From a virus: DNA of 42,630 nucleotides. Within the stretch, counting starts at the first letter, position 1; each line of letters starts with the position of its first letter. Below the pieces are notes generated by a model, which was given only the letters and a program-made list of their open reading frames with translations, searched no databases and was not told the origin of the DNA. Of the stretch, positions 3,895 through 42,061 are shown piece by piece. The position numbers and the translations under genes are program-made. The stretch covers positions 1-42,630 of the IMG/VR virus record IMGVR_UViG_3300015192_000003, one strand, 5' to 3'.

Positions 3895-4148
3895 GGCGTC
3901 TCGCCATCCGCTCGACGGCCACACATCGCGGCCAACTCAGCCATCACCTGGCGGAAGATCGGCTCCTGCCAGGCCTCGAGCTCCTCGCTGGTGCAGTGGT
4001 CTAGGAACTCCACGAAGTCAGGTCGTGCCTTGAGCCACAGGTCTTCCAGCGCGTCCTCGCACGCTTCGCCCATGTGGGTGAACAGATCCTCTGCGGCATG
4101 CCGCACTGCCACTGGGATGACGGTGACTATCTCTTCACGGTCACTCAT
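3891..4148 (-). CDS. Hypothetical acidic early protein
   Basis: 85 aa starting MSDREEIVTV at the ATGA overlap with the PP-loop gene. Acidic and helical (EACEDALEDLWLKARPDFVEFLDHCTSEELEAW). The first residues, SDREE, come from a shortened version of the recurrent start motif (TTCACGGTCA at 4134-4143). No known domain. Confidence 0.65.
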   Translation of the reverse strand: MSDREEIVTVIPVAVRHAAEDLFTHMGEACEDALEDLWLKARPDFVEFLDHCTSEELEAWQEPIFRQVMAELAAMCGRRADGETP

Positions 4149-5086
4149 GCCGCACCGTCTTCCTTGAGGATGATGCTGTCGGTACGACACGCGAAGGGGG
4201 AGCACCCGGGCAAGTCGTCTTCCTCGTACATGCCCTCGAACGCGAGCGGGTCGTTGAGGTCCGCCAGTAGGTCGCCCTGGCGGGACTTCCACTCATGGCC
4301 GGTCACACGGTCGATGGGCGCGACGCCCAGTGGAACGCGGGAGCGGTGCAGGAACATCTGCCCACGCAGGCTCTTGCCTTCAGCGTTTGCCTTTGCAGTA
4401 CCTCCACGGATCGCGGCGTCGAATGCGACAGCGTCAGCGAAGTCAGCAGGAGCGGTGTCGCGGAGTTTCCGCCAGGCCGCATTGCCGTGGAACGGGCAGC
4501 CAACACACGCGCTCTTGGGCGTTTCTCCCCAGCCAAGTTCGGTGAGGTAGCGGATGCAGTCGACCCGGCTCATGCCCAGCTCGATGAGCGGGTAGCGGTT
4601 GCGGGAGTAGTTGACGTCCGATTCGTGCATCCGGTGGGCTTCGTCGGTGCTGATTCCGACCCACTGCTCGACGTAGACGCCCTTGGGGACGGGAGTGGGA
4701 TGCGGGCAACCAAGAAGCTTGCGGACTGCGGCCTTAATGGGCTTGATCTTGTACTCGCTTGTGCACTGGCGTCGGACCATACCCGGGGTGCCGTTCTTGT
4801 TCAGGACGTACATCGGCATCGACGCGAAGCGGTGTGCGGGGTCAAGGGCGTCATCCCTGATGTTCCCGCTGCTCACGCGCAGGATGGGGATGCCCGCATG
4901 CTGGGCGATCTCGGTGTCGATCCGGTCCAGGTGCGCGTAGACGGCCGCCGGTTCCCATCCTGTGTCGGAGAAGATCGCGGCGTCGATCGGTGGCAGCTTT
5001 CCGCGGGCGACCAACAGCAGGAGAGCGGTGGACTGCACACCAGCACCGAGGCTGAGGACACGCTTAGCGGGCTTGGTGTCACTCAC
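4145..5086 (-). CDS. PP-loop ATPase, PAPS reductase/DndC-like
   Basis: 313 aa from a GTG overlapping the previous stop (GTGA). The N-terminus has LSLGAGVQSTALLLL (about residues 11-25), a variant PP-loop (SGGxDS-type) ATP-pyrophosphatase motif, followed by IFSDTGWEP as in the PAPS reductase superfamily. QCTSEYKIKPI (about 106-116) and SACVGCPFHG (about 193-202) supply conserved cysteines, possibly for a metal or Fe-S site. The superfamily adenylates or reduces sulfur compounds, and members such as DndC take part in DNA sulfur modification. No dnd partners are visible, so the substrate is unknown. It could serve DNA modification, tRNA thiolation or sulfur scavenging. Confidence 0.75.
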   Translation of the reverse strand: MSDTKPAKRVLSLGAGVQSTALLLLVARGKLPPIDAAIFSDTGWEPAAVYAHLDRIDTEIAQHAGIPILRVSSGNIRDDALDPAHRFASMPMYVLNKNGTPGMVRRQCTSEYKIKPIKAAVRKLLGCPHPTPVPKGVYVEQWVGISTDEAHRMHESDVNYSRNRYPLIELGMSRVDCIRYLTELGWGETPKSACVGCPFHGNAAWRKLRDTAPADFADAVAFDAAIRGGTAKANAEGKSLRGQMFLHRSRVPLGVAPIDRVTGHEWKSRQGDLLADLNDPLAFEGMYEEDDLPGCSPFACRTDSIILKEDGAA

Positions 5087-9412: not shown

Positions 9413-9623
9413 TCGCCGTGCGGTCTCTGATACCGGCAGAAGCCAGCACCGTTGCTGCTTATGTAGCCCTCAACCGGAGGAGCATTTGCTAGGGCTGTCC
9501 CTAACCCCGGTCGGTCCCCCTTCTCCTCGCCCCGTCCCCTCCCGTTTTTGGAAGGGGAGATTCTCGCGGCGTCAGGTGGTTTCCAAGCACCCGACGCTGC
9601 CTGCTTTTAGGTAGCCGGGCCGC

Positions 9624-9878
9624 TCATGTTCGCTTCGCTCGGCGGCGTGCGTGGCGTCTGGCCTTGCTGCCGCGACGTCGGAAGGACTGATCACGCAGGT
9701 ACGGCACGTTGGTCGCCGGCTGCCGGTCGAGCCGCGGGATCAGGAAAAGCCGGCCCCGGGCTGTATAGCGGACGTGGCGCCGCTCAGCCCGGGACTGGCC
9801 GCTCTGGGAGCTGACCAGGACAGGCGTCAGCGTCGGCGCGGCGAGGACCCGGGCCGGGGTGCGGCCGTGGCTACTCAC
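9624..9878 (-). CDS. Arginine-rich small protein
   Basis: 84 aa from a GTG that overlaps the HTH gene's stop (GTGA), which is the main reason to accept it. Strongly basic, with RRRGSKARRHARRRAKR at the end, consistent with nucleic-acid binding. No fold is recognised; composition alone could mislead in GC-rich DNA. Confidence 0.5.
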   Translation of the reverse strand: MSSHGRTPARVLAAPTLTPVLVSSQSGQSRAERRHVRYTARGRLFLIPRLDRQPATNVPYLRDQSFRRRGSKARRHARRRAKRT

Positions 9879-10165
9879 GCCGACTTGAGCTTGTCGCCGA
9901 CGGCGGGATCCACCGGGATGCTCGTTTGTCCTTGCCCCGCATGACCTCTGCGGCGGTATCCGCCGACTTTTGTCGGAGTCGTGGACCGGAGGTGTCTTGC
10001 TCTAGCGAGCTTCTCAACGTCCGCCCGCACAAAAAGCCTTGAGCTGGTCTTGCCGGGCCCCTGATGTGCGGTGATGAGCTGCCCACTGGCCGCCCAGCGG
10101 TTGACGGTGACGCGCTTGACGCCGAGGATTTCGGCGGCCTCCAGAGAACCGACCATCTTGATCAT
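9875..10165 (-). CDS. HTH regulator, Cro/excisionase-like
   Basis: 96 aa; ATG at 10163-10165, 6 nt past a -10 box, so the mRNA is likely leaderless. SLEAAEILGVKRVTVNRWAASGQLI (about residues 7-31) is a MerR/Xis-type HTH with a following wing, RLFVRADVEKLARA. The C-terminal 40 aa are basic. As the first gene transcribed away from the repressor, it occupies the usual cro or xis position. An in-frame ATG at 10154-10156 is an alternative start. Confidence 0.75.
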   Translation of the reverse strand: MIKMVGSLEAAEILGVKRVTVNRWAASGQLITAHQGPGKTSSRLFVRADVEKLARARHLRSTTPTKVGGYRRRGHAGQGQTSIPVDPAVGDKLKSA

Positions 10166-10171
10166 TCGGCC

Positions 10172-10200
10172 AATATAGACGCCAGGGCAAACTTGCTCAA
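10172..10200 (-). promoter_or_regulatory. Leaderless early promoter
   Basis: Minus strand TTGAGC (10195-10200), 17-nt spacer, TATATT (10172-10177). Transcription should begin at or next to the ATG of the HTH gene. The -35 continues as TTGAGCAAGTTTGCCC, the operator-like motif shared with the opposing promoter. Confidence 0.75.
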
Positions 10201-10256
10201 CCCCAACACGACGGAACAAACTGACTGCTGCATGTCTCCCTTGCACAAGTTTGATC
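10185..10256. promoter_or_regulatory. Paired operator motif TTGnnCAAGTTTG
   Basis: TTGAGCAAGTTTGCCC on the minus strand (10185-10200) and TTGCACAAGTTTGATC on the plus strand (10241-10256) start at the -35 boxes of the two divergent promoters. A partial AACTTG occurs at 10265-10270. These are candidate binding sites for the XRE repressor encoded alongside. Confidence 0.6.
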
Positions 10257-10269
10257 ACTGCGCTAACTT
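10241..10269 (+). promoter_or_regulatory. Leaderless repressor/lysogeny promoter
   Basis: TTGCAC (10241-10246), 17-nt spacer, TAACTT (10264-10269), then 7 nt to the ATG at 10277. The mRNA should be leaderless. Since every following gene to 16040 is closely spaced, this promoter probably serves the whole plus-strand operon. Confidence 0.75.
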
Positions 10270-10276
10270 GGCGTCC

Positions 10277-10672
10277 ATGACCACCGGCACCGTGACAATC
10301 GCAGGGACTGTTCCCCAATGGACCACCAGGGACCGGCTGAGGAAGGCACGTGAGATCACGGGTCAGAGCCAGGCCGAGTTCGCCAAGGACTTGGGCGTAT
10401 CGCGGGGGACCGTCAAGAACTATGAGAGCGGAGCGATCAGCGCCTACAGGCGGCCCACTCTGCTGGCCTGGGCGATGCGTTCAGGCGTTCCATTGGAGTG
10501 GCTGCTCACTGGGCAGGAGTCGCCGTCGTCCTCGCCGTCTCCGTCGAAGTCGCTAGAGTCGACGACGCCGGCGGGTTCGGAAACTACTCGCTGGTATGCG
10601 GACAACGTAGTCCAGCTCTTCTCCGCGATTCGGGTGCAACCCTACGACGTCGCCGCTCTCAAGTCGGCGTGA
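10277..10672 (+). CDS. XRE-family immunity repressor
   Basis: 131 aa from the ATG at 10277, supported by the leaderless promoter. Residues about 15-75 (DRLRKAREITGQSQAEFAKDLGVSRGTVKNYESGAIS...) form a Cro/C1-type HTH with the conserved Q-S/T-x-x-F-A...SRGTVKNYE pattern. The following PLEWLLTG is typical of phage repressor HTHs. The C-terminus is a serine/proline linker and a short helical end, with no peptidase domain, so induction would not be by self-cleavage. It probably binds the paired motif in its own promoter region. Confidence 0.85.
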   Translation: MTTGTVTIAGTVPQWTTRDRLRKAREITGQSQAEFAKDLGVSRGTVKNYESGAISAYRRPTLLAWAMRSGVPLEWLLTGQESPSSSPSPSKSLESTTPAGSETTRWYADNVVQLFSAIRVQPYDVAALKSA

Positions 10673-10716
10673 TGAGCACGCATATGTCCCGGTTCGAGCC
10701 GGTCTGGGCTGTCTGA
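10672..10716 (+). CDS. 14-codon coupling mini-ORF
   Basis: ATG overlaps the repressor stop (TGATG at 10670-10674) and its TGA overlaps the recombinase ATG (TGATG at 10714-10718). It encodes MSTHMSRFEPVWAV. The double TGATG suggests it serves to pass ribosomes from repressor to recombinase; a function for the peptide itself is unknown. It spans GGTTCGAGCC, a tRNA T-arm-like string. Confidence 0.5.
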   Translation: MSTHMSRFEPVWAV

Positions 10717-11561
10717 TGGGACACCAAGCCGCCGCGCGGCACCTCTGGGCTGTCCACGATGCGCCCATGGATAACTTTGCAGGATTCGAGTCATGGCTTC
10801 GGGCCAACAGCTGCGGCAACCTCACAGTCAAGGACCGCTTCACCCACCTGGCGGACTTCGAGCGGTCCCACCCGAACTTCCCCCACGTCACCCCGGTTGA
10901 GATCGCGATGTGGATCGGCCGCCCCGGGTATGCGGCCTGGTCGAGGGCGACGTACTACGGGCACCTGCGCAGCTACTTCCGTTATGCCACCGAGTGCGGG
11001 CTCGTACCGCTCGACCCGATGCAGCAGATGCGCCGGCCGAAACCAGGCAAGACCGTGCCGCGGCCGTTGAGCCAGGCCCAGGTCACCGCGGTGCTGGCCG
11101 GCGCCACCCCGGACATCAGGGCCTGGCTCACTCTCGGGCTGTATGCCGGTCTGCGCGCGTACGAGATCGCCAAGATCCGCGGGGAAGACGTCGACCTCGA
11201 GCAGCTGTACGTGTTCGGCAAGGGCGAGCAGTCGGCATACGTGCCTTGCCACCGGCTGGTTTGGAAGCTGGCGGAGACCCGCCCGCGATACGGGTGGTGG
11301 TTCCCGACGCGCTCCGCTGCCGGGCATGTCACGTCGGCGGCCGTGTCGGGTAGGACGTCGAAGCTCTTCACGACCTATGGGATCGAAGGGTCTATCCACC
11401 GCTGCCGGCACACCTTCGCCACCCAGCTGCTGCGCGCCGGGGTGAATATCCGGATCGTGCAGACCCTGATGCGCCACGAGAGCCTCTCGTCGACACAGAT
11501 CTACACCGCAGTCGACGAGGTCGAGCGCCGTGACGCGATCGCCCTTCTGATGGCGGCGTGA
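10716..11561 (+). CDS. int: Tyrosine recombinase/integrase 1
   Basis: 281 aa from the TGATG-coupled ATG; an alternative ATG at 10767 lacks a ribosome site. The N-terminal SAM-like core-binding domain (about residues 20-110) is followed by the catalytic domain. It has GLRAYE with the first Arg (about 147), HRCRHTF with the HxxR box (about 228-231), LMRHESLSSTQIYT with the second His and the nucleophile Tyr (about 263). All key residues are present. It resembles XerC-like and phage/AICE integrases. Being in the repressor operon, it would be made in the lysogen, which is unusual for a pure integrase and would suit dimer resolution as well. Confidence 0.9.
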   Translation: MGHQAAARHLWAVHDAPMDNFAGFESWLRANSCGNLTVKDRFTHLADFERSHPNFPHVTPVEIAMWIGRPGYAAWSRATYYGHLRSYFRYATECGLVPLDPMQQMRRPKPGKTVPRPLSQAQVTAVLAGATPDIRAWLTLGLYAGLRAYEIAKIRGEDVDLEQLYVFGKGEQSAYVPCHRLVWKLAETRPRYGWWFPTRSAAGHVTSAAVSGRTSKLFTTYGIEGSIHRCRHTFATQLLRAGVNIRIVQTLMRHESLSSTQIYTAVDEVERRDAIALLMAA

Positions 11562-11938
11562 TGACCACCCACATTCCACTCGAGCATGGAGCCCACGTCA
11601 TGAATACGGACGACCCGACCTACCACGACTTCGCCCGCGATCTCCGAGCCCTCGCCGACACCTTCGACCGGCTCGCAGACCAACTCCCTATGTGCCGATA
11701 CCCCAAACAGGGCATCAAGATCCTGATGAGCATGGAATACCTCGGGCAGGTCACCCAAGCCGCGGAAGCCCTCGGCATCAAGGTCTGTGAGGAGGGTGGC
11801 CATACCGACGCGATGTGGGACCAGGGCCTGATCCACGTCAACTACAACCACATCAGCGCTGCGCACTGGTCCAAGTTCAAGGCAGAGCAGGCCCGGTTCA
11901 AGAAGATGCTCGAGGCAGAGTCTGTGGACGCGCCGTGA
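11561..11938 (+). CDS. Hypothetical lysogeny-operon protein
   Basis: 125 aa if started at the TGATG with the integrase; an internal ATG at 11600 with GGAG 8 nt upstream would give 112 aa. Helical and His-containing (NYNHISAAHWSKFKAEQARFKKMLEAE). No recognisable family. Confidence 0.65.
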   Translation: MTTHIPLEHGAHVMNTDDPTYHDFARDLRALADTFDRLADQLPMCRYPKQGIKILMSMEYLGQVTQAAEALGIKVCEEGGHTDAMWDQGLIHVNYNHISAAHWSKFKAEQARFKKMLEAESVDAP

Positions 11939-12138
11939 GCTCTGAACTGGACTTCACGGACACCTATGGGCGGGTTGTCCGCCCTTATGCCTGCCGTGTG
12001 TGTGGCTGCACCGAGTTCGACGGCTGCCCTGGTGTCCAGGGTGGGTGCTACTGGGTCGACACCGACGACTCCGGCGAGAACTTTGGCCCGCTGTGCTCGG
12101 AATGCGCTCCGGAGAGGCTGGAACCGTGTCAGTGCTAG
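11935..12138 (+). CDS. CCxC zinc-finger protein
   Basis: 67 aa from a GTG overlapping the previous stop (GTGA). ACRVCGCTEFDGCPG...GGCYWVD...PLCSECAPE has the spaced cysteines and the GGCxWV signature of a small zinc-finger domain frequent in phage proteins of unknown function. Likely structural metal binding, possibly DNA contact. Confidence 0.7.
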   Translation: MSSELDFTDTYGRVVRPYACRVCGCTEFDGCPGVQGGCYWVDTDDSGENFGPLCSECAPERLEPCQC

Positions 12139-12863
12139 AACCACCGATCGAAGAAGACCTTGGAGATGCCGCCCTCCTCGAGCAGACCCGTGCCCATAGC
12201 GTCTTCTGGGGTACGGCCTACGAGTTCGGCGATGAGATCCCACGCATGCCTGCCCGGATGGAGCGGCTACCTCGAGACCACGCAGGCCGGCCCGTCCCCT
12301 GGTTCGTCGCCTGGGTCGACGGCAAGCCCGACTTCCGGGTCATCGCGGCCGGCCGCTTCGCTGAGGCGATCAAAGGCGGCCTGTGCTGGGTTTGTGGGCA
12401 GCGCCTCGGGGCCTACGCCGCGTTCCTGATCGGACCGATGTGTGCGGTCAACCGCACCACCGCCGAACCTCCATGCCACCGCGACTGCGCGACCTGGTCA
12501 GCCCAGCTGTGCCCGTTCCTGGCGAACCCGGAACGTCGACGACGCGACTCCCGCCTCCCCAGCGGTGTGACTGACCCCTCCGGAGAGATGATCCGCCGCA
12601 ACCCCGGCGTGGCTCTGGTCTGGGTGACCCGCAGCTGGTCGCTGTTCAACGATGGGCAAGGCGGGTTGCTCATCAAGATTGGCGACCCGACCGAGACGGG
12701 CTGGTACGCCCATGGCCGGGAGGCGACCCGGGCCGAGGTGTGCGCTTCGATCGACTCCGGACTGCCGATCCTCACCGAGATGGCCGAGGCGGAAGGACCG
12801 GAAGCGGTCGTGCAGCTGGCCGCCCAGGCTCTCGCCGCTCATGCCCTTCTGCCCGCGTCATGA
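12126..12863 (+). CDS. Cys-rich actinophage protein of unknown function
   Basis: 245 aa from a GTG with GGAGAGG 8 nt upstream. The core reads LCWVCGQRLGAYAAFLIGPMCAVNRTTAEPPCHRDCATWSAQLCPFL (about residues 87-133). Its cysteines and histidines occur with this spacing in many hypothetical proteins of actinobacteria and their phages, often beside zinc-finger genes as here. Metal or nucleotide binding is plausible. No enzyme class can be named. Confidence 0.7.
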   Translation: MSVLEPPIEEDLGDAALLEQTRAHSVFWGTAYEFGDEIPRMPARMERLPRDHAGRPVPWFVAWVDGKPDFRVIAAGRFAEAIKGGLCWVCGQRLGAYAAFLIGPMCAVNRTTAEPPCHRDCATWSAQLCPFLANPERRRRDSRLPSGVTDPSGEMIRRNPGVALVWVTRSWSLFNDGQGGLLIKIGDPTETGWYAHGREATRAEVCASIDSGLPILTEMAEAEGPEAVVQLAAQALAAHALLPAS

Positions 12864-13045
12864 CCGGACCCGAGCACTACCTCGAAGCTGAGCGCCTCCT
12901 CGATTACGTCAACCAGCACAGCGACACCCTGACGGTGGCCGATGCCCAGAGCTTCGTAGCCGAGGCTCAGGTCCATGCCACGTTGGCTCTCACCACGAGC
13001 GAGGTCCAAGCAGAGGCTAGAGAAGTGGCGGCCTACCGGTCATGA
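12860..13045 (+). CDS. Hypothetical small helical protein
   Basis: 61 aa, start MTGPEHYLEAERLLDYV, ATGA-overlapped at both ends. All-helical, acidic. The N-terminal EAERLL...HSDTLTVADAQSFVAEAQVHATLAL pattern is common in short actinophage proteins without assigned role. Confidence 0.65.
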   Translation: MTGPEHYLEAERLLDYVNQHSDTLTVADAQSFVAEAQVHATLALTTSEVQAEAREVAAYRS

Positions 13046-13380
13046 GCGATAACGGCACTTCACGGACCAGCCCTTATGACAGCGATGAGTGGCGCGAGTA
13101 CTCCGTGCGCGTTGTAGAGGAGATGCTGCCCAAGCTCACGGACTCGAGATGCATGGCCATGCTGCTGTCCGGGACGGACCCGGACGTCAAGATGGCAGTC
13201 GAGCTCGGCTTCGCGCTGCTCCTGGACAAGCCGCTGATCCTGCTCGTGACCCCGAATACGGCTGTCCCTGAGCGTCTGCGCCGGGCAGCGGACGCGATCG
13301 TCGTGGGCGAGATCCAGCACCCCAACACCCAGAAGGAACTGGCCGCCGCGATCAAGCGGGTTGGGGTCGAGCCAGAGTGA
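13042..13380 (+). CDS. Nucleoside 2-deoxyribosyltransferase-like protein
   Basis: 112 aa. LLSGTDPDVKMAVELGFALLLDKPLILLVTPNTAVPERLRRAAD (about residues 33-77) matches the NDT-like Rossmann fold: an acidic turn, the E-x-G-x-A helix with the candidate catalytic Glu, and a D/G-K-P-x-I strand. True enzymes move deoxyribose between bases. Short phage versions may instead handle modified nucleotides or signalling molecules. The N-terminal D-W...Y segment could complete the pocket. Coupled by 4-nt overlaps. Confidence 0.6.
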   Translation: MSDNGTSRTSPYDSDEWREYSVRVVEEMLPKLTDSRCMAMLLSGTDPDVKMAVELGFALLLDKPLILLVTPNTAVPERLRRAADAIVVGEIQHPNTQKELAAAIKRVGVEPE

Positions 13381-13451
13381 CCGGCCTATACATCGCGATC
13401 AACGTCATCGCGCGAACCAACCATGAGGATCAGGAGACGAGTCCCACCTAG
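13377..13451 (+). CDS. Possible 24-aa peptide
   Basis: A GTG overlapping the previous stop (GTGA) opens (M)TGLYIAINVIARTNHEDQ and ends at TAG. The only support is the same overlap pattern used by its neighbours. Confidence 0.4.
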   Translation: MTGLYIAINVIARTNHEDQETSPT

Positions 13452-13525
13452 CTTTGGCGACCACCCGGCGCCGAGATCTGACCCAAGGCGCCGGGGGCCT
13501 AATCCGACTGAAGAGGAGTCGAACT

Positions 13526-13843
13526 GTGGAACAGAGTACGAGCCCCGCCCAACCGGGCACCGCACCGCTCGTGAGGCGTGTCCGAGCGATCGCCCAGCTG
13601 GCCATGCTGGAGTGTGCTGGCGGCCTCGGCTGCCTGGCCGTGATCGCGCCATTTCATTCGCTGGCGGGCGGCCGCCCTATCGCCCTGGTGCTGCTGGTCC
13701 TGGGCCTGCTGGCCGCCGCGTTCTGGTTGGCCACGCGGTCCTGTGCCGCGGCCGCCGATGAGCGGGACCACCTGGCCTACCTCGAGCGACGCCGCGCCTA
13801 CCTCGCGAGCGTTGAGCCCGCCACGACGGAGGTGCCGCGGTGA
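13526..13843 (+). CDS. Small membrane protein before the translocase
   Basis: 105 aa from a GTG with GAGGAG 7 nt upstream. Two hydrophobic helices (about residues 27-45 and 51-69) and a charged C-terminal cytoplasmic tail. Small membrane proteins are regularly encoded beside TraB-type translocases in actinobacterial conjugative elements (Spd-like), so a partner role is inferred. Confidence 0.65.
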   Translation: MEQSTSPAQPGTAPLVRRVRAIAQLAMLECAGGLGCLAVIAPFHSLAGGRPIALVLLVLGLLAAAFWLATRSCAAAADERDHLAYLERRRAYLASVEPATTEVPR

Positions 13844-13965
13844 AGGCTCTTGCCGCCTTCTGGGGGTGGATGTTCGCGAGTGACTGGGACTCCCAGAGCC
13901 TGCTCGGCCTCATAGACGCCAGCGATGACTTCGACGAGATGGACGAGCTGGAGGAGTCGAGATGA
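13840..13965 (+). CDS. Short acidic protein
   Basis: 41 aa, GTGA overlap with the previous gene and ATGA overlap with the translocase. Aromatic N-terminus (KALAAFWGWMFASDW) and a strongly acidic end (DDFDEMDELEESR). Too short to classify. The overlaps make translation likely. Confidence 0.6.
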   Translation: MKALAAFWGWMFASDWDSQSLLGLIDASDDFDEMDELEESR

Positions 13966-16040
13966 GCGAAGTCGTCAGGCTGGCCACCGCTCGACTCGCC
14001 CGGCGCGCCGATGCCGAGCCGCCACGGGTAGAAGTCGACGCCGTGGTGATGGATCTGCGGCCGCGGCCCAGCTCGCACCGCAAGGTCATCCCGGCCGTGC
14101 TGCGGGACCGTGAGAGCGCCTCAGCGGCTGCGAGGTGGACGGCTGTGCACTACGCGCACACCAGCGCCTTCCACACGCTGCGGCTGCCCCTGTACTGCGT
14201 CCGGCTGCTCCTGCTATCCCCGATCGGCGCCTTCAGGGTGATTCGTACGGTGAGCCGGTGGGTCGCAGACCTCGAGGGGCGCACTGTTCGGGCGGCCATG
14301 TCGGGGCTGATCGGGCTGAACCGCTCTGACGCCGCGGTGTTCGTGCGGCTGACCCAGCAGCGCCGGCAGACGTTCCGTGACCGTCTGCTCCTGGTCACCG
14401 TCGCCGCGTTCGTGCTGCTCTTCGCCGGGGCCCGCGCGGCCAAGGAGATGACCGGGCCGGCCCTGCTCGGGGCCGCGGCCCTGGCAGTGCTGGTCCTCGG
14501 CCTGGTCGGGCGCCGGGCCGACCGGCCGCTGACCTCCCGTGCGGTCGACAGCGAGGCAGTGCCCCGCCTGACCGCAGACCTGATCCTGACCGCGATGGGC
14601 TCGTTGGGTATCGGCGAGCTCAACAAGGCGATCGCGCGCGACCCGGCCCAGGCGCTGCGGTTCCCTGCGCCGATCTGCCGGGACGGGCCTGGCTTCCGGG
14701 CAGAGATCGACCTGCCGCCCGGTGTGACAGCGGGGGATGTGATCGAGCGCAGGGACCGGCTCGCCTCCGGGCTGCGCCGGCCGCTCGGCTGCGTCTGGCC
14801 TGAGGTCGACAGCGACGCCCACGCCGGCCGGCTCATCCTCTGGGTCGGCGACAAGTCCCTCTCGAGCTCCAAGCCGGTCGCGTGGCCACTGACCAAGGCC
14901 GGCCGGGTCAACCTCTTCACCCCGTTCGTCATCGGCACCGACCAGCGCGGCCGGCCGGTCGAAGTGACCCTGCTCTTCGCCTCAGGGGTGATCGGCGCCA
15001 TACCAAGGATGGGCAAGAGCTTCGCCTTGCGGCTGCTGCTCCTGGCCGCGGCACTGGATCCTCGAGCCGAGATCCACGTGTTCAACCTCAAGGGCGGCGC
15101 CGACCATGACCCGATGGAGAGCGTCGCGCACCGCTACCGAACCGGCGACGACCCGGAGGACATCGAGTACATGGTTCGCGACCTGAGGGCCGTCCACGCC
15201 GACATGCGGGTCAGGTACAAGACCGTTCGCGACCTGCCCAAGGATGTGTGTCCGGAGTCCAAGGTCACCGATGAGCTGGCGTCGCAGCGGAGCCTAGGTC
15301 TGCACCCGGTGCTCGTCGCCCTCGACGAGTGCCAGATCGCGTTCGAGCACGACGTCCATGGCGCCGAGCTGATCTCTCTGGTGACCGACCTGGTGAAGCG
15401 CGGCCCGGCCGTGGGCATCATGCTCTGGGCGGCGACCCAGCGCCCAGACGCCAAGAGCCTGCCGTCCAGCATCGCCAGCAATGCCGTCCTGCGGCTGTGC
15501 CTGAAGGTCCAGGGCCAGGTCGAGAACGACATGGTGCTCGGCACCTCGTCCTACAAGAACGGGATCCGGGCCACGATGTTCTCCAGGAAGGACCGAGGGA
15601 TCGCGCTGCTGTCTGGTGAGGGCGATGACCCGCTGATCGTGCGCCTGGCCTACGTGGACACCCCGACCGCTGCCGTCGTCGCGGCTCGAGCTCGGACCGC
15701 CCGCCTCAGTGCCAAGCTGCTGACCGGCCACGCCGCCGGGCATGACCCTGACCCGGACACGGACAAGGCGTCGGTGCTGGACCACCTGGCCGCCGTCTGG
15801 GTCACTGGCGAGGACAAGGCCTGGTGTGACGACCTCGCTGAGCGTCTCGCCGCGGCCTACCCGCACAGCTACGGGGGATGGACCGGCGAGCAGGTCACCG
15901 CAGCCGTCAAGCCTCACGGGCTGCGAGCCATCCAGATCAAGCGGCCCCTGGACGGCATCCCGGTCAACCGGCGTGGCCTGTCCCGCAGCGACCTCACGGT
16001 CGCGCTGGCGGACCGCGACGACATACCGGAGGCCTTCTAG
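13962..16040 (+). CDS. tra: FtsK/SpoIIIE-family DNA translocase (TraB/TraSA-like)
   Basis: 692 aa. Two transmembrane helices lie at about residues 138-190 (RLLLVTVAAFVLLFAGA; LLGAAALAVLVLGLVG). A Walker A-like GAIPRMGKS is at about 344-352 and Walker B VLVALDEC at about 449-456, followed by the ATQRPDAKSLPSSI sensor region typical of FtsK/SpoIIIE motors. The last 80 residues (ERLAAAYPHSYGGWTGEQVTAAV...) look like a winged helix, as in the gamma domain of FtsK and the site-reading end of TraB. Actinobacterial conjugative plasmids and AICEs use one such protein to move double-stranded DNA between hyphae. Size and layout fit TraSA/TraB better than chromosomal FtsK. A repeated 7-mer follows immediately downstream. 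Confidence 0.9.
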   Translation: MSEVVRLATARLARRADAEPPRVEVDAVVMDLRPRPSSHRKVIPAVLRDRESASAAARWTAVHYAHTSAFHTLRLPLYCVRLLLLSPIGAFRVIRTVSRWVADLEGRTVRAAMSGLIGLNRSDAAVFVRLTQQRRQTFRDRLLLVTVAAFVLLFAGARAAKEMTGPALLGAAALAVLVLGLVGRRADRPLTSRAVDSEAVPRLTADLILTAMGSLGIGELNKAIARDPAQALRFPAPICRDGPGFRAEIDLPPGVTAGDVIERRDRLASGLRRPLGCVWPEVDSDAHAGRLILWVGDKSLSSSKPVAWPLTKAGRVNLFTPFVIGTDQRGRPVEVTLLFASGVIGAIPRMGKSFALRLLLLAAALDPRAEIHVFNLKGGADHDPMESVAHRYRTGDDPEDIEYMVRDLRAVHADMRVRYKTVRDLPKDVCPESKVTDELASQRSLGLHPVLVALDECQIAFEHDVHGAELISLVTDLVKRGPAVGIMLWAATQRPDAKSLPSSIASNAVLRLCLKVQGQVENDMVLGTSSYKNGIRATMFSRKDRGIALLSGEGDDPLIVRLAYVDTPTAAVVAARARTARLSAKLLTGHAAGHDPDPDTDKASVLDHLAAVWVTGEDKAWCDDLAERLAAAYPHSYGGWTGEQVTAAVKPHGLRAIQIKRPLDGIPVNRRGLSRSDLTVALADRDDIPEAF

Positions 16041-16067
16041 ACGACGACCTCGAGACCAAGGAGCCCC

Positions 16068-16224
16068 TGCTACCGGTAGCACCTTCCCCTGCTACCGGTA
16101 GCAGGGCTGCTACCTGCCCTGCTACCCATCTGACCTGCGCGGTAGCAGGGGTAGCACCTGATCGAGGACCCCCTTCAAACGCCGGATTCGGGCGGAATCA
16201 CGGGGTCCCAGCTCGGCTGCTACC
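16068..16224. repeat. Cluster of nine GGTAGCA/TGCTACC sites
   Basis: Sites: 16068 (TGCTACC), 16075 (GGTAGCA), 16090 (TGCTACC), 16097 (GGTAGCA), 16108, 16120 (both TGCTACC), 16141, 16150 (both GGTAGCA), 16218 (TGCTACC). The first four form two perfect palindromes TGCTACCGGTAGCA. The cluster directly follows the translocase gene, where conjugative elements often carry the clt sites read by TraB. Arm sites for the adjacent recombinase or replication iterons are alternatives. Confidence 0.8.
16166..16208. repeat. Nested inverted repeat
   Basis: Outer arms GGACCCC (16166-16172) and GGGGTCC (16202-16208) enclose an inner stem GATTC (16185-16189) / GAATC (16195-16199). It sits between convergent genes and may be a bidirectional terminator or part of an origin/transfer site. 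Confidence 0.6.
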
Positions 16225-17035
16225 TGACTACCGCGGCGGCGATCTTGACCGAGATGTCGCTGGACGGGTCGGCGTATATCGCTGTCGTCACGGGGCTGGC
16301 GTGGCCCATCATCCGGCCGACTGCCAGGAGGTCTCCGGTCGCTTGGTAGGCCATGGTCCCGTACCGGTGGCGGAGCGCGTGCGAGGTTCCGCTGATCCCG
16401 GCCCGATCGAACGCCCTGTTGACCCGACGTTGCAGCGTGGCCGCGGTGTAGGGCTTGTGGCCGGCTGACACGACGTTGCCGCCGGTGTCAGGCAGCAGCT
16501 GGTCGATCAGGACGGGGGAGATCGCGATGAGCCTCTCCTTGCCGCCCGCGTGGCCCTTGCCGTGCAGGACCCGCAGTGTCCTGGCCTCGACGTCGATCTC
16601 AGGCCAGTTCAGGGCCGCAGCCTCGTGGATGCGGCACCCGGCGTATGCACCCAGGCATACGGCACGGCGAAGGTCGGGCTCGAAGGTGCTCAGGGCCTTC
16701 TCCAGGTCGTGCTTGGCCATCGGGTGCGGCAGGCCGGTCGGGACGTGCGGGGGGTCGATGCGCAGGGTCGGGTCGTCGGTGCGGTGTTCCCAGCGCCGGC
16801 ACCATTTGAGGAAGGACCGGATGCCGGCGAGGTCGCTGGCACGGCTGGAGGGGGCTAGGCCGGTGCGGGCAGCCCACCAGGTCTCGACGTCCTCGCGGGT
16901 CGCTGTGCCGGCGTTGCCGATCGAGCGGAGCGTGGCCACCCGACGGGCGATGGTATTCGGCGGGACGTGCTCGTTGCGGCACCACTCGATCCAGGCGATT
17001 GAGAGAGGGTCTGTCAGGGGGATGGGGTGACTCAT
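16220..17035 (-). CDS. int: Tyrosine recombinase/integrase 2
   Basis: 271 aa, with AAGGAAG 9 nt before the ATG. Core-binding domain about residues 10-100; catalytic residues in GCRIHEAA (first Arg, about 133), GKGHAGGKER (beta hairpin with Lys), HALRHRYGT (HxxR box, about 216-219), MMGHASPVTTAIYA (second His and nucleophile Tyr, about 250). All are present. It is XerD-like in size and lacks an arm-binding N-terminus. It has its own transcription unit, with a strong terminator behind the upstream methyltransferase. Which of the two recombinases integrates the element cannot be decided from sequence. Its 3-prime end runs into the GGTAGCA cluster. Confidence 0.9.
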   Translation of the reverse strand: MSHPIPLTDPLSIAWIEWCRNEHVPPNTIARRVATLRSIGNAGTATREDVETWWAARTGLAPSSRASDLAGIRSFLKWCRRWEHRTDDPTLRIDPPHVPTGLPHPMAKHDLEKALSTFEPDLRRAVCLGAYAGCRIHEAAALNWPEIDVEARTLRVLHGKGHAGGKERLIAISPVLIDQLLPDTGGNVVSAGHKPYTAATLQRRVNRAFDRAGISGTSHALRHRYGTMAYQATGDLLAVGRMMGHASPVTTAIYADPSSDISVKIAAAVVR

Positions 17036-17147: not shown

Positions 17148-17179
17148 AAAAACGCCCCACCTGTAGACCAGGTGGGGCG
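17148..17179 (-). terminator. Intrinsic terminator after methyltransferase gene
   Basis: On the minus strand a perfect 11-bp stem (CGCCCCACCTG / CAGGTGGGGCG) with a 5-nt loop is followed by TTTTTG. A textbook intrinsic terminator ending the methyltransferase transcript. Confidence 0.85.
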
Positions 17180-17210
17180 CGTCGTCCGGAGCGGACTGAT
17201 AGCAGGCTAC

Positions 17211-18140
17211 TCAGGCGAGGGCCTGCTGATCGGTAGCAAGGAAGGACTCCCATGCGCGAGTTACGCCGCCGGAACCTGGGAAGAGATCTTCGAGCTGATC
17301 GCCGGCTTGGGCGCCGAGGAGGTCGAACATCCACCGGCAGAACACGGCCGGCTTGGAGCCGATGACCCGGAGTGGGTCAGTGCGCCGTGGCCGGGAGTGG
17401 AACACCAGTGAGTCGAGGCGTCGCGCGGCCGCACTTCGCGACGCGTCGTGGGAGTACTCCTGCGACGCGTCGGGCTGTCCGGGACGCGATGCGTCGTACG
17501 GACCAGGTGGTGACGCGTCGTTGTCGGATCCGGCGGACGCGTCGCTTACCACCGCGGCGCTACGCGATAACCCGTAGCTCTCGGCCGCAGACGACGCGTT
17601 CGCGATCGCACCGCGTGTCTCCTCGCTGCAGGCGCGACGCGTCGCGGGGCGATCGCCGTTCGATGCGTCGACTGCTCGAGGGACGACGGCTCGGCCACCG
17701 AAGTAGATGACCGGCTCCCAGGCGTTCAGCGGCCGTGCGCTACGGGTCGGCCGCTCGCCGCGGTGCCAAGCCGCGACACGGACACCGGCCGGGCAAAGCC
17801 CGAGAACCACGGGCAGCGCTTCGGCCGAGGTCGACAGCGCCCATCCGTCGTACGTCGACAAGCGACGGATCAGCTCGCCGTGGTCGACCTCGCCGCCGAA
17901 GTCCGGGTGATCGCTGTAGTAGCGAGCTGACAGGCCCGGATAGGGCGGGTCAGCGTACGCCAGGCGTAGCGGTACGCCGGCGCTACGCGACGCCTGGCCC
18001 ACGGCCCTGGTGAAGCGCCACCGAGCCTGCCGGCAACGGACCGAGCAGCACACCGAGTCGCTTCGCGCGGCCTCTGGGATGGACTCTGAGCACCAGGCGC
18101 ACGCGTCGCGCTGGCCGGCGAACACGACGGCTGTAGTCAT
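17211..18140 (-). CDS. DNA methyltransferase (beta-class order) with zinc knuckle
   Basis: 309 aa. The N-terminus CAWCSESIP...CCSVRCRQARWRF is an FCS-like zinc finger (about residues 14-42). LAYADPPYPG (about 60-69) is catalytic motif IV (DPPY) and LEDLFPGSGGVTRAWE (about 285-300) is the AdoMet-binding motif I, giving the IV-to-I order of beta-class amino-methyltransferases (N6-adenine or N4-cytosine). The region where a target-recognition domain would sit is instead a low-complexity linker (about 158-245) of repeated DAS octapeptides, encoded by GACGCGTC arrays. No restriction partner is seen; a protective or regulatory orphan role is likely. An AT-rich palindrome lies 52 bp upstream. Confidence 0.8.
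   Translation of the reverse strand: MTTAVVFAGQRDACAWCSESIPEAARSDSVCCSVRCRQARWRFTRAVGQASRSAGVPLRLAYADPPYPGLSARYYSDHPDFGGEVDHGELIRRLSTYDGWALSTSAEALPVVLGLCPAGVRVAAWHRGERPTRSARPLNAWEPVIYFGGRAVVPRAVDASNGDRPATRRACSEETRGAIANASSAAESYGLSRSAAVVSDASAGSDNDASPPGPYDASRPGQPDASQEYSHDASRSAAARRLDSLVFHSRPRRTDPLRVIGSKPAVFCRWMFDLLGAQAGDQLEDLFPGSGGVTRAWESFLATDQQALA
17440..17669. repeat. 24-bp periodic GACGCGTC array inside the methyltransferase gene
   Basis: GACGCGTC (or GATGCGTC at 17488) starts at 17440, 17464, 17488, 17512 and 17536, exactly 24 bp apart. Further copies are at 17593 (GACGCGTT), 17636 and 17662 (GATGCGTC). Most encode Asp-Ala-Ser, but the copy at 17636 is read in another frame (Ala-Thr-Arg-Arg). 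Confidence 0.85.
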
Positions 18141-40421: not shown

Positions 40422-41018
40422 TCAGTATGTGGAGACCCTTCCGCGGGCGCGGGTCAGGTTGTGTTTCGCGACGCCCCACCCGTCAGCTCGAGCATCGGCG
40501 GTAGCCTCATGGCAGATGACAGAGGTCGCGGCGCCGTCGATCTTGCGGTGGTAGGCGCCGGCCGGTTTGGTCAAGACGTAACGGTCAGCGCCGACGGCTT
40601 TCTTACGGGCGTTGGCGATGTGCAGGGCCGTGGTGGGGCAGTCATCGTGGGTGAGCGCACCGGTGGTGAGATCGGTGACGAATCGCTGGCAGGCGGCGTG
40701 CATCTGCGCGGTCCGGTAGGTCGCCCATGGGATGACGACCGTCTCCCCGAACCTCAGGGCCCAGGCCTCGATCTCGGACTGCCACCACGGCGGGTCGAAG
40801 TAGCCCCGGGCGACGCGGTAGGTCGCGAACGTCTCGGCCAGCGCGGCGTCGACCTCGAGGCGGGGGATTCGCCCGCCCCACTCGGCCGGGTTCCAGATCG
40901 TTGGCCGCTTGTCGGGTCCGTAGGTCGGTGTGAACTGGTGCCCTTCTCGGGTCTCTGCTCGCAGGTAGGTGAAGTCGTCGCTGTCGGAGCCGTCGAATCC
41001 TAGGCAGACGTCTTGCAT
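40422..41018 (-). CDS. terL: Terminase large subunit, nuclease domain (separate gene)
   Basis: 198 aa starting MQDVCLGFDGSDSDDF; ATG at 41016-41018 with GGGAG 5 nt upstream, overlapping the ATPase gene by 19 nt in another frame. All three expected RNase H-fold acids are present: FDGSDSDD (about 8), GYFDPPWW (about 75), LTHDDCPT (about 147). It cuts concatemeric DNA at packaging. In most phages this domain is fused to the ATPase. Confidence 0.85.
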   Translation of the reverse strand: MQDVCLGFDGSDSDDFTYLRAETREGHQFTPTYGPDKRPTIWNPAEWGGRIPRLEVDAALAETFATYRVARGYFDPPWWQSEIEAWALRFGETVVIPWATYRTAQMHAACQRFVTDLTTGALTHDDCPTTALHIANARKKAVGADRYVLTKPAGAYHRKIDGAATSVICHEATADARADGWGVAKHNLTRARGRVSTY

Positions 41019-42061
41019 GACGTCTCCCACAGGCCCTCAGGCAGCCATGCGCCCAGGCCCTGGACCAGGCGCCCGCCGAAGAACCGCTCGGCCTGGGTGG
41101 GGTCCTTCTCGAGTAGTTCGAGGGCCTCGGCTTCGATGCTGTCGAGGTCGATGTGGCCACAGCCCGCGTAGACGTACTGCAAGATCTTGCGGCGCTCGCG
41201 TTTGTTCTTGAACGACAGAGCAGCCGGTGGTTGCCGGAAGAACTTGAAGATGTCCGGGGCCGGGGACTCGAATGTGCTCTGCGCGACGCTGTTCTCGCCC
41301 GGGTCCCACGTGTTCGTGGTCTCCATCGTTCGGCCGCCCATGCCGGCCGCGCCGCGGCGTTGGGTTTCGGCGAGCTTGCGCATCTTGTTCGATGTCAGGT
41401 ACAGCCCGGTCTCGTCCTGGAGTCCGAAGCTGATGGGGTTGCCCAGGCGGGCCGGAGCTGATGAGGTCACGGCGTCGATCCGGTCCATGTCCGGGTCGTC
41501 GCTGGCGCCGACGATGCGGATGAAGGACTCACGGACCTTCAGGAGGTGCTTCAGCGGTCCCATGTGGATCATCGCGGTTAGCGGCCGGTAGACGTTGTCG
41601 ACCTGGTCCTGGGACGTGGCTGTGAGCTGGATCAGCGGAGATGGATGCCGTAGACCCTTGGGCTCGCCTGGCTCATAGGCGAAGGTCCAGCCACAGGGGC
41701 AGCCTGAGTCGGCACAGTCATATACCTCGCCGCGTTTGGCCCATCCGCCGAACAGGCACGGGCCCACGGCCTCGTTCGCCACGATCGCTGCCGACCAGGG
41801 CCCTTTGCCGGTCTTCTGGGGGCCGACGATCTGGCTGCGGCGGTAGGTGAACGCCTGATTCAGCAGCGGCCGCTGCGGGATCCACTTCGCATCTTCACGG
41901 ATCCGGTAGTGGTTCGCCGCGCACCAGAACTGCCAGTCGTACTCCTTGAACGGCTCGCCTCGAGCGAAGAGATCGGGTACGCGGCAGTGCTGCTCGATCC
42001 AGCCATCGACCAGGTCGCCGAGGGTCGGGAAGTCGACGACGAAGTCATTGCCCATCGCCAA
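41000..42061 (-). CDS. terL: Terminase large subunit, ATPase domain (separate gene)
   Basis: 353 aa. Walker A SQIVGPQKTGKGPWSAA (about residues 76-92), Walker B ISFGLQDETGLY (about 213-224), and a C-terminal end FFGGRLVQGLGAWLPEGLW where fused terminases would go on to the nuclease. It stops at TAG 41000-41002, so the motor lacks the nuclease unless the ribosome shifts frame. It overlaps the small subunit gene by 17 nt. It powers DNA packaging. Confidence 0.9.
   Translation of the reverse strand: MAMGNDFVVDFPTLGDLVDGWIEQHCRVPDLFARGEPFKEYDWQFWCAANHYRIREDAKWIPQRPLLNQAFTYRRSQIVGPQKTGKGPWSAAIVANEAVGPCLFGGWAKRGEVYDCADSGCPCGWTFAYEPGEPKGLRHPSPLIQLTATSQDQVDNVYRPLTAMIHMGPLKHLLKVRESFIRIVGASDDPDMDRIDAVTSSAPARLGNPISFGLQDETGLYLTSNKMRKLAETQRRGAAGMGGRTMETTNTWDPGENSVAQSTFESPAPDIFKFFRQPPAALSFKNKRERRKILQYVYAGCGHIDLDSIEAEALELLEKDPTQAERFFGGRLVQGLGAWLPEGLWETSCKTSA

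What the first reader, a model, noticed from the sequence alone, without database searches (positions are those of the whole stretch)
10277..16040. Conjugation-type FtsK/TraB translocase carried in the repressor operon of a tailed phage
Seen: a 692-aa protein with two membrane helices, Walker A-like GAIPRMGKS, Walker B ALDEC and a C-terminal winged helix lies at the end of a plus-strand operon that begins with an XRE repressor, with nearly every junction an ATGA/GTGA/TGATG overlap. Known: actinobacterial AICEs and conjugative plasmids move double-stranded DNA with one protein of this design and typically pair it with a tyrosine integrase, an XRE- or GntR-type regulator and small membrane proteins. 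Inference: the element may be a phage-plasmid/AICE hybrid that spreads both by virions and by cell-to-cell transfer, expressing the motor in the lysogen.
Basis: partly seen in the sequence, partly recalled or inferred. Interest (0 to 1): 0.87.

Follow-up and report, generated by a model that had tools for sequence, protein, structure and literature searches.

The report
Phage carrying AICE conjugation module
A complete soil bacteriophage genome carries, in the operon of its dormancy repressor, the single-protein DNA-transfer motor of actinobacterial conjugative elements together with the matching repeated DNA 'address tag', so its dormant form may be able to move directly from cell to cell as well as by virus particles.

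Summary
The 692-aa protein (13962-16040) is real. It is the Tra protein of actinomycete integrative conjugative elements (AICEs), not a chromosomal FtsK: it falls inside an AICE-Tra clade (67% identical over the motor), has two membrane helices, an FtsK-fold motor and a C-terminal winged helix, and closes a ten-gene operon headed by a repressor 36% identical to a Gordonia phage immunity repressor. The rest of the window is a complete siphophage genome. GCTA-core arrays follow tra in about 90% of 82 AICE loci, and their flanking bases covary with the winged helix rather than the motor. A sister phage (97.8% identical virion genes) has exchanged the whole cassette, yet again carries repressor, integrase, tra (44% aa) and its own GCTACC array. 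About 20 further phage records, including two circular plasmids of isolates, carry tra; phage copies are not one clade. Conjugation itself is inferred. Streptomyces plasmid-phages are a precedent: new variant of a known kind.

The parts
10277..10672 (+). XRE-type immunity repressor, first gene of the operon
   Evidence: HTH_19 2.3e-9, phrog_2328 repressor 1.3e-21, 36% to Nyceirae immunity repressor
10716..11561 (+). Tyrosine recombinase 1 (XerC-like, R..HxxR..Y present), second gene
   Evidence: PF00589 4.4e-20; 30% to Nyceirae integrase, 28% to a ChuckDuck integrase
11558..11938 (+). Small protein, no family
   Evidence: ORF with 4-nt overlap
11935..12138 (+). Small Cys-rich (zinc-binding-like) protein
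   Evidence: ORF with 4-nt overlap
12126..12863 (+). Unknown protein, about 245 aa, start uncertain
   Evidence: ORF; no PHROG match
12860..13045 (+). Small phage protein of phrog_16141
   Evidence: similar ORF near tra in G004
13042..13380 (+). Nucleoside deoxyribosyltransferase-like protein
   Evidence: PF05014 sub-threshold, phrog_18163 4.5e-22
13454..13843 (+). Small protein with two hydrophobic helices, possible Spd analogue (position only)
   Evidence: ORF; no family match
13840..13965 (+). 41-aa ORF overlapping tra start
13962..16040 (+). AICE-type Tra: membrane-anchored FtsK/SpoIIIE-fold dsDNA motor with C-terminal winged helix
16067..16224 (.). clt-like array: nine [CG]TGCTACC sites (+: 16067, 16089, 16107, 16119, 16217; -: 16075, 16097, 16141, 16150)
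16220..17035 (-). Tyrosine recombinase 2, convergent with tra, shared at 95.7% DNA identity with sister phage G028
   Evidence: PF00589 1.2e-16
17152..17180 (-). Terminator-like hairpin closing the late minus-strand genes
   Evidence: pattern match only

Best explanation
The window is a complete temperate actinobacterial siphophage whose lysogeny operon has taken up the transfer unit of an AICE: the Tra motor plus its cis-acting recognition array (clt) just behind the gene. Proposed working: the repressor operon makes Tra in the lysogen; Tra inserts in the membrane as a hexamer; its winged helix docks on the [CG]TGCTACC repeats of the excised or circular prophage; the motor pumps the double-stranded phage genome into a neighbouring cell, where a tyrosine recombinase re-integrates it. 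The phage thus has two routes of spread, virions and contact transfer. Shown here: family, fold, membrane anchor, operon, array, covariation of array with winged helix, retention of tra plus array in a sister phage with an exchanged cassette. Inferred: DNA binding, hexamer, expression in the lysogen, pumping, cell-to-cell transfer.
For: Tra lies inside an AICE Tra clade, 99/95 support; 80 of 82 loci examined have AICE Prim-Pol/integrase and none has terminase or capsid genes within 10 kb. FtsK-dsDNA motor fold, Foldseek 2e-14, winged helix. Array: nine TGCTACC in 16068-16224, 17 in the whole window against 2.5 expected; no shuffle reaches it; densest GCTA window of the genome. Positive control pSVH1 TRS recovered at the same position. 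Same kind of array 3' of tra in 84% of 82 AICE and 52% of 21 phage copies (p<=0.05) against about 5% of control stretches. Motif flanks covary with the winged helix, partial r 0.66, 0/2000 permutations, not with the motor. Sister phage G028 has another tra and its own GCTACC array. In pWTY27 the analogous 3' repeat region is required for transfer and bound by TraA (PMC3583192).
Against: No transfer, binding or expression data. No DUF2637/Spd partner in the window, though 14 of 19 other phage records and G028 have one. The array lies next to integrase 2, so an att role is not fully excluded for the window alone. Host unknown; TraB-type conjugation is proven mainly in mycelial actinobacteria. 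Covariation test is not corrected for phylogeny. In the close terminase-sister set only 1 of 39 searched records has tra, so it is not essential.
Confidence: 0.66

Rival explanations
1. Segregation or dimer resolution: the motor works like FtsK with the XerC-like recombinase of its operon, resolving or partitioning multimers of an extrachromosomal prophage inside the cell, the array being its loading or orienting sequence.
For: A XerC-like recombinase lies in the same operon (TIGR02224 7e-29), also in pPaSha2 and G028. FtsK-type fold.
Against: Phylogeny is AICE Tra, not FtsK. The array sits as a compact cluster 3' of tra like a clt, not skewed along the genome like KOPS. AICE relatives share motor and array without a recombinase next to tra.
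Confidence: 0.14
2. The repeats are attP arm sites of integrase 2 or a bidirectional terminator, and tra is only a passenger gene gained by chance.
For: Array lies between tra and the convergent integrase gene and contains perfect inverted repeats.
Against: AICE relatives have the array 3' of tra with the integrase kilobases away. Motif covaries with the Tra winged helix. No terminator-like T run found there. G028 keeps integrase 2 at 95.7% but its array lies at the end of tra, before a DUF2637 gene about 1 kb away from integrase 2, and has a different motif variant.
Confidence: 0.1
3. Tra in the lysogen serves against competitors: it blocks or hijacks incoming AICEs and plasmids, or acts in superinfection exclusion, rather than moving the phage.
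For: Expression with the repressor operon would fit a prophage-borne exclusion gene; Tra and its array resemble those of AICEs.
Against: A cis array on the phage's own genome is not needed for exclusion; array and winged helix appear coadapted.
Confidence: 0.06
4. Assembly chimera of a phage and an AICE.
For: Metagenome-derived viral record with a GC step in tra (72.5% in 14-15 kb against 63-68% around).
Against: A 4-nt overlap joins tra to the operon; an independently assembled sister record carries a different tra at the same locus; circular plasmids of cultured Pseudonocardia show the same architecture.
Confidence: 0.02

Closest known systems
AICE Tra proteins (FtsK/SpoIIIE-type ICEs of Actinobacteria; PMC3218068)
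   Same: Full-length homology up to 55%, motor 67%; membrane anchor, winged helix, GCTA-core array 3' of the gene
   Different: Sits in a phage immunity operon with virion genes; no Prim-Pol or DUF2637 in the window
TraB of pSVH1 with TRS/clt; TraA of pWTY27 with clt
   Same: Same anatomy: 7-8-bp repeats directly 3' of tra; 32% identity over the motor to pSVH1 TraB
   Different: Different repeat sequence (TGCTACC against GACCCGGA and TGACACC); small plasmids without virion genes
Streptomyces plasmid-phages pZL12 and pFP4 (cited in PMC3583192 and PMC4170104)
   Same: Reported to conjugate as episomes and also to form phage particles
   Different: Primary papers not held and sequences not compared here; not among the matches of the window Tra
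Pseudonocardia alni plasmid pPaSha2 (CP052773.1)
   Same: Phage head and tail genes plus XRE, recombinase, small genes, membrane protein, tra on one strand; tra 44%
   Different: Circular plasmid; unrelated virion genes for the most part; DUF2637 present; no significant array right behind tra
Gordonia phage Nyceirae and Arthrobacter phage ChuckDuck
   Same: Related terminase or portal (about 63-65%), integrase(s) and repressor in the same slot between lysis and early genes
   Different: No tra

Membership tests
AICE/TraB-type transfer protein | Sequence clusters with AICE Tra, apart from chromosomal FtsK and EccC | tested here: met
   Tree 99/95 within AICE Tra
AICE/TraB-type transfer protein | N-terminal membrane helices, RecA-like FtsK motor, C-terminal winged helix | tested here: met
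AICE/TraB-type transfer protein | clt locus of 7-8-bp repeats next to tra | tested here: met
AICE/TraB-type transfer protein | Binds clt and moves dsDNA to a recipient | not testable with these tools
   needs EMSA and mating assays
AICE (whole element) | Integrase plus Tra plus Rep (RepSA, RepAM or Prim-Pol), as in PMC3218068 | tested here: not met
   Integrase and Tra present; no Prim-Pol in the window, no Rep family among ORFs scanned; RepSA and RepAM not searched by a dedicated model
Tailed temperate phage | Terminase, portal, capsid, tail genes, repressor and integrase | tested here: met
Phage-plasmid | Maintained as an autonomous episome with plasmid replication or partition | tested here: inconclusive
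   No rep or par family recognised in the window; two integrases point to integration; relatives W01 and W02 are circular plasmids
Chromosomal FtsK | Clusters with host FtsK | tested here: not met

The most novel reading that the evidence does not exclude
Temperate actinobacterial siphophages repeatedly acquire, and exchange as one cassette with their immunity and integration genes, a complete tra-clt unit from AICEs, so that the prophage spreads by contact transfer under repressor control while keeping a virion route. The GCTA-core repeats behind tra are the so far undescribed clt of this AICE family, read by the Tra winged helix with a decodable specificity.
Probability: 0.5. Interest if true: 0.86.

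Novelty: new variant of a known kind. Interest (0 to 1): 0.74.

Why it matters
It would give a defined, cassette-like case of one genome with two transmission modes, in temperate siphophages rather than in the few Streptomyces plasmid-phages reported. It also makes an open question testable: what AICE Tra proteins recognise. [quoted passage not shown] The GCTA-core arrays behind tra in about 90% of 82 AICE loci, and their covariation with the winged helix, are a concrete prediction.

Tried and rejected
tblastn of the window Tra against 50,697 phage records gave no match, and a divergent relative's Tra found only remote FtsK-like proteins, mainly of Bacillus and Mycobacterium phages, so sequenced phage isolates do not help. 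A single-protein scan of viral contigs found nothing; the profile found 22 loci. Genome-wide 8-mer enrichment gave no signal and did not recover the pSVH1 control either; only the local cluster scan did. With one mismatch allowed, the repeat test loses power (L013, L018, L021, L024 not significant). DUF2637 looked like a fixed partner but is missing in the window. 'Two integrases are unusual' was dropped: ChuckDuck also has two. A sigma-70-like promoter before the XRE gene was not found by the scan; only one weak minus-strand site. Literature searches for a phage with an AICE Tra found none in the held library; the pZL12 paper is not held.

Full report
What the window is. The 42,630-base record is a viral contig. 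It holds the late genes of a siphophage on the minus strand (terminase 41000-42061, portal, protease, scaffold, HK97-type capsid, tail tube, 1362-aa tape measure, endolysin), an early minus-strand block (about 0.4-10.3 kb), and between them one plus-strand operon, 10277-16040. Terminase and portal are closest to Arthrobacter, Gordonia and Streptomyces phages. In sister record G028 the two ends of the window are contiguous, so the genome appears complete.

The observation. The operon is XRE repressor, tyrosine recombinase, seven small or unknown genes, then the 692-aa motor, with 4-nt overlaps at most junctions. The XRE protein is 36% identical to the annotated immunity repressor of Gordonia phage Nyceirae, which has integrase and repressor in the same slot but no motor.

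What the motor is. The best 80 of 456 genome relatives are 47-55% identical. In 80 of 82 loci examined (these 80 and two from plasmid records) AICE-type Prim-Pol and/or integrase genes lie nearby, and terminase or capsid genes never do within 10 kb. In a tree with chromosomal FtsK, EccC and plasmid TraB the window protein is inside the AICE Tra clade (99/95). AlphaFold gives an FtsK-type motor and a C-terminal winged helix; Foldseek's best matches are FtsK motor domains, including complexes with dsDNA, at 2e-14. The Walker A variant GAIPRMGKS is the family consensus (GAxPRMGK[ST]), so it is not a sign of decay.

The array. Looking for the cis site that such proteins need, a local scan for clustered 8-mers found CTGCTACC directly 3' of the gene, and recovered the GACCCGGA cluster 3' of traB in pSVH1 as a positive control. 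Nine [CG]TGCTACC sites lie in 16067-16224; none of 2000 shuffles gave as many copies of one 8-mer. Position and form match the pWTY27 clt, which is 16 bp of traA plus 159 bp 3' of it, bound by TraA and needed for transfer (PMC3583192). The same kind of array follows tra across the AICE relatives: a repeated 8-mer at p<=0.05 in 84% of 82 against about 6% of control stretches, and in 74 of 82 the tra 3' end is the densest GCTA window of the whole locus. The variable bases around GCTA follow the winged helix (r 0.75; 0.66 with motor divergence removed) and not the motor (-0.20), and the most informative residues are mainly in the winged helix, 641-644, 655 and 667. These figures are not corrected for shared ancestry.

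Phages with the same gene. Twenty-two viral contigs encode the protein. Of 20 searched, 17 carry terminase and/or capsid genes, with DUF2637 usually just upstream of tra. Two complete circular plasmids of cultured Pseudonocardia are phage-like with the same Tra; pPaSha2 has the same order as the window: XRE, recombinase, small genes, membrane protein, tra. The phage copies are not one clade (AU p 8e-67, at least five changes between phage and AICE), and their virion genes mostly do not match the window's: the gene appears to have been taken up repeatedly. About half of the phage copies have a significant array directly behind tra.

The sister phage. G028 is 97.8% identical over 13.8 kb of virion genes and 95.7% over integrase 2, but the stretch equivalent to 9430-16220 is replaced. 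The replacement has another XRE protein (35%), another recombinase (29%), another tra (44% aa), a DUF2637 protein, and eight GCTACC sites, seven of them GCGCTACC, at the end of its tra. It is the only one of 39 records searched (mostly relatives by terminase) that has tra. Retention of tra plus array through exchange of the whole cassette argues for a function, and against a chimera.

Mechanism. The best-supported reading is transfer of the dsDNA prophage by Tra acting on its clt, expressed from the lysogeny operon, with virions as the second route. Steps shown: protein family, fold, anchor, operon, array, covariation. Steps inferred: binding, expression in the lysogen, pumping, entry into a recipient. 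Segregation with the XerC-like recombinase is the main rival.

Place among known things. Streptomyces plasmid-phages reported to conjugate and to form virions are a precedent (PMC4170104; pZL12 in PMC3583192), so the dual life style is not new as a kind. New here, as far as the held library shows, are the AICE-derived tra-clt unit in the immunity operon of temperate siphophages, its cassette exchange between sisters, its repeated acquisition, and the GCTA-core arrays as candidate clt of this AICE family; no clt motif had been described for AICE pSAM2 (PMC9513070). The window itself is not filed as an AICE, because no replication gene of that kind was found, nor as a proven phage-plasmid.

Noticed in passing
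L031-L110 (80 genome loci), 300 bp 3' of tra: AICE-wide GCTA-core inverted and direct repeat arrays directly behind tra, with sub-types (CCGCTAGC, CCGCTAGA/G, [CG]TGCTACC, CCGCTAAC) that follow winged-helix sub-types: a candidate general clt of this AICE family.
   Followed up: partly
G028 contig ends (L241 start and L243 end): Both contig ends carry a nearly identical stretch of about 110 bp that includes the 3' end of the integrase 2 gene: att-like duplication or tandem prophages, unresolved.
   Followed up: no
L003, L011 (G003), L009 (G001), L021, L027: A small membrane protein with a CxxCxGxG-type zinc motif lies just downstream of tra in several phage copies; absent in the window.
   Followed up: no
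window 10185-10270: CAAACTTG/CAAGTTTG inverted repeats between the divergent XRE gene and the minus-strand HTH gene: likely repressor operators, with the XRE start codon possibly leaderless.
   Followed up: no
window 4145-5086 (-): Phosphoadenosine phosphosulfate reductase-like protein (phrog_424, 9e-49) in the early region.
   Followed up: no
window 17438-17640: Cluster of ACGCGTCG-type repeats inside the minus-strand ORF 17211-18140.
   Followed up: no
NZ_CP053567.1 (L005): 27-kb Pseudonocardia plasmid combining phage head and tail genes, Prim-Pol and a primase-family replication gene, integrase, DUF2637 and Tra: a fuller phage/AICE hybrid than the window.
   Followed up: partly
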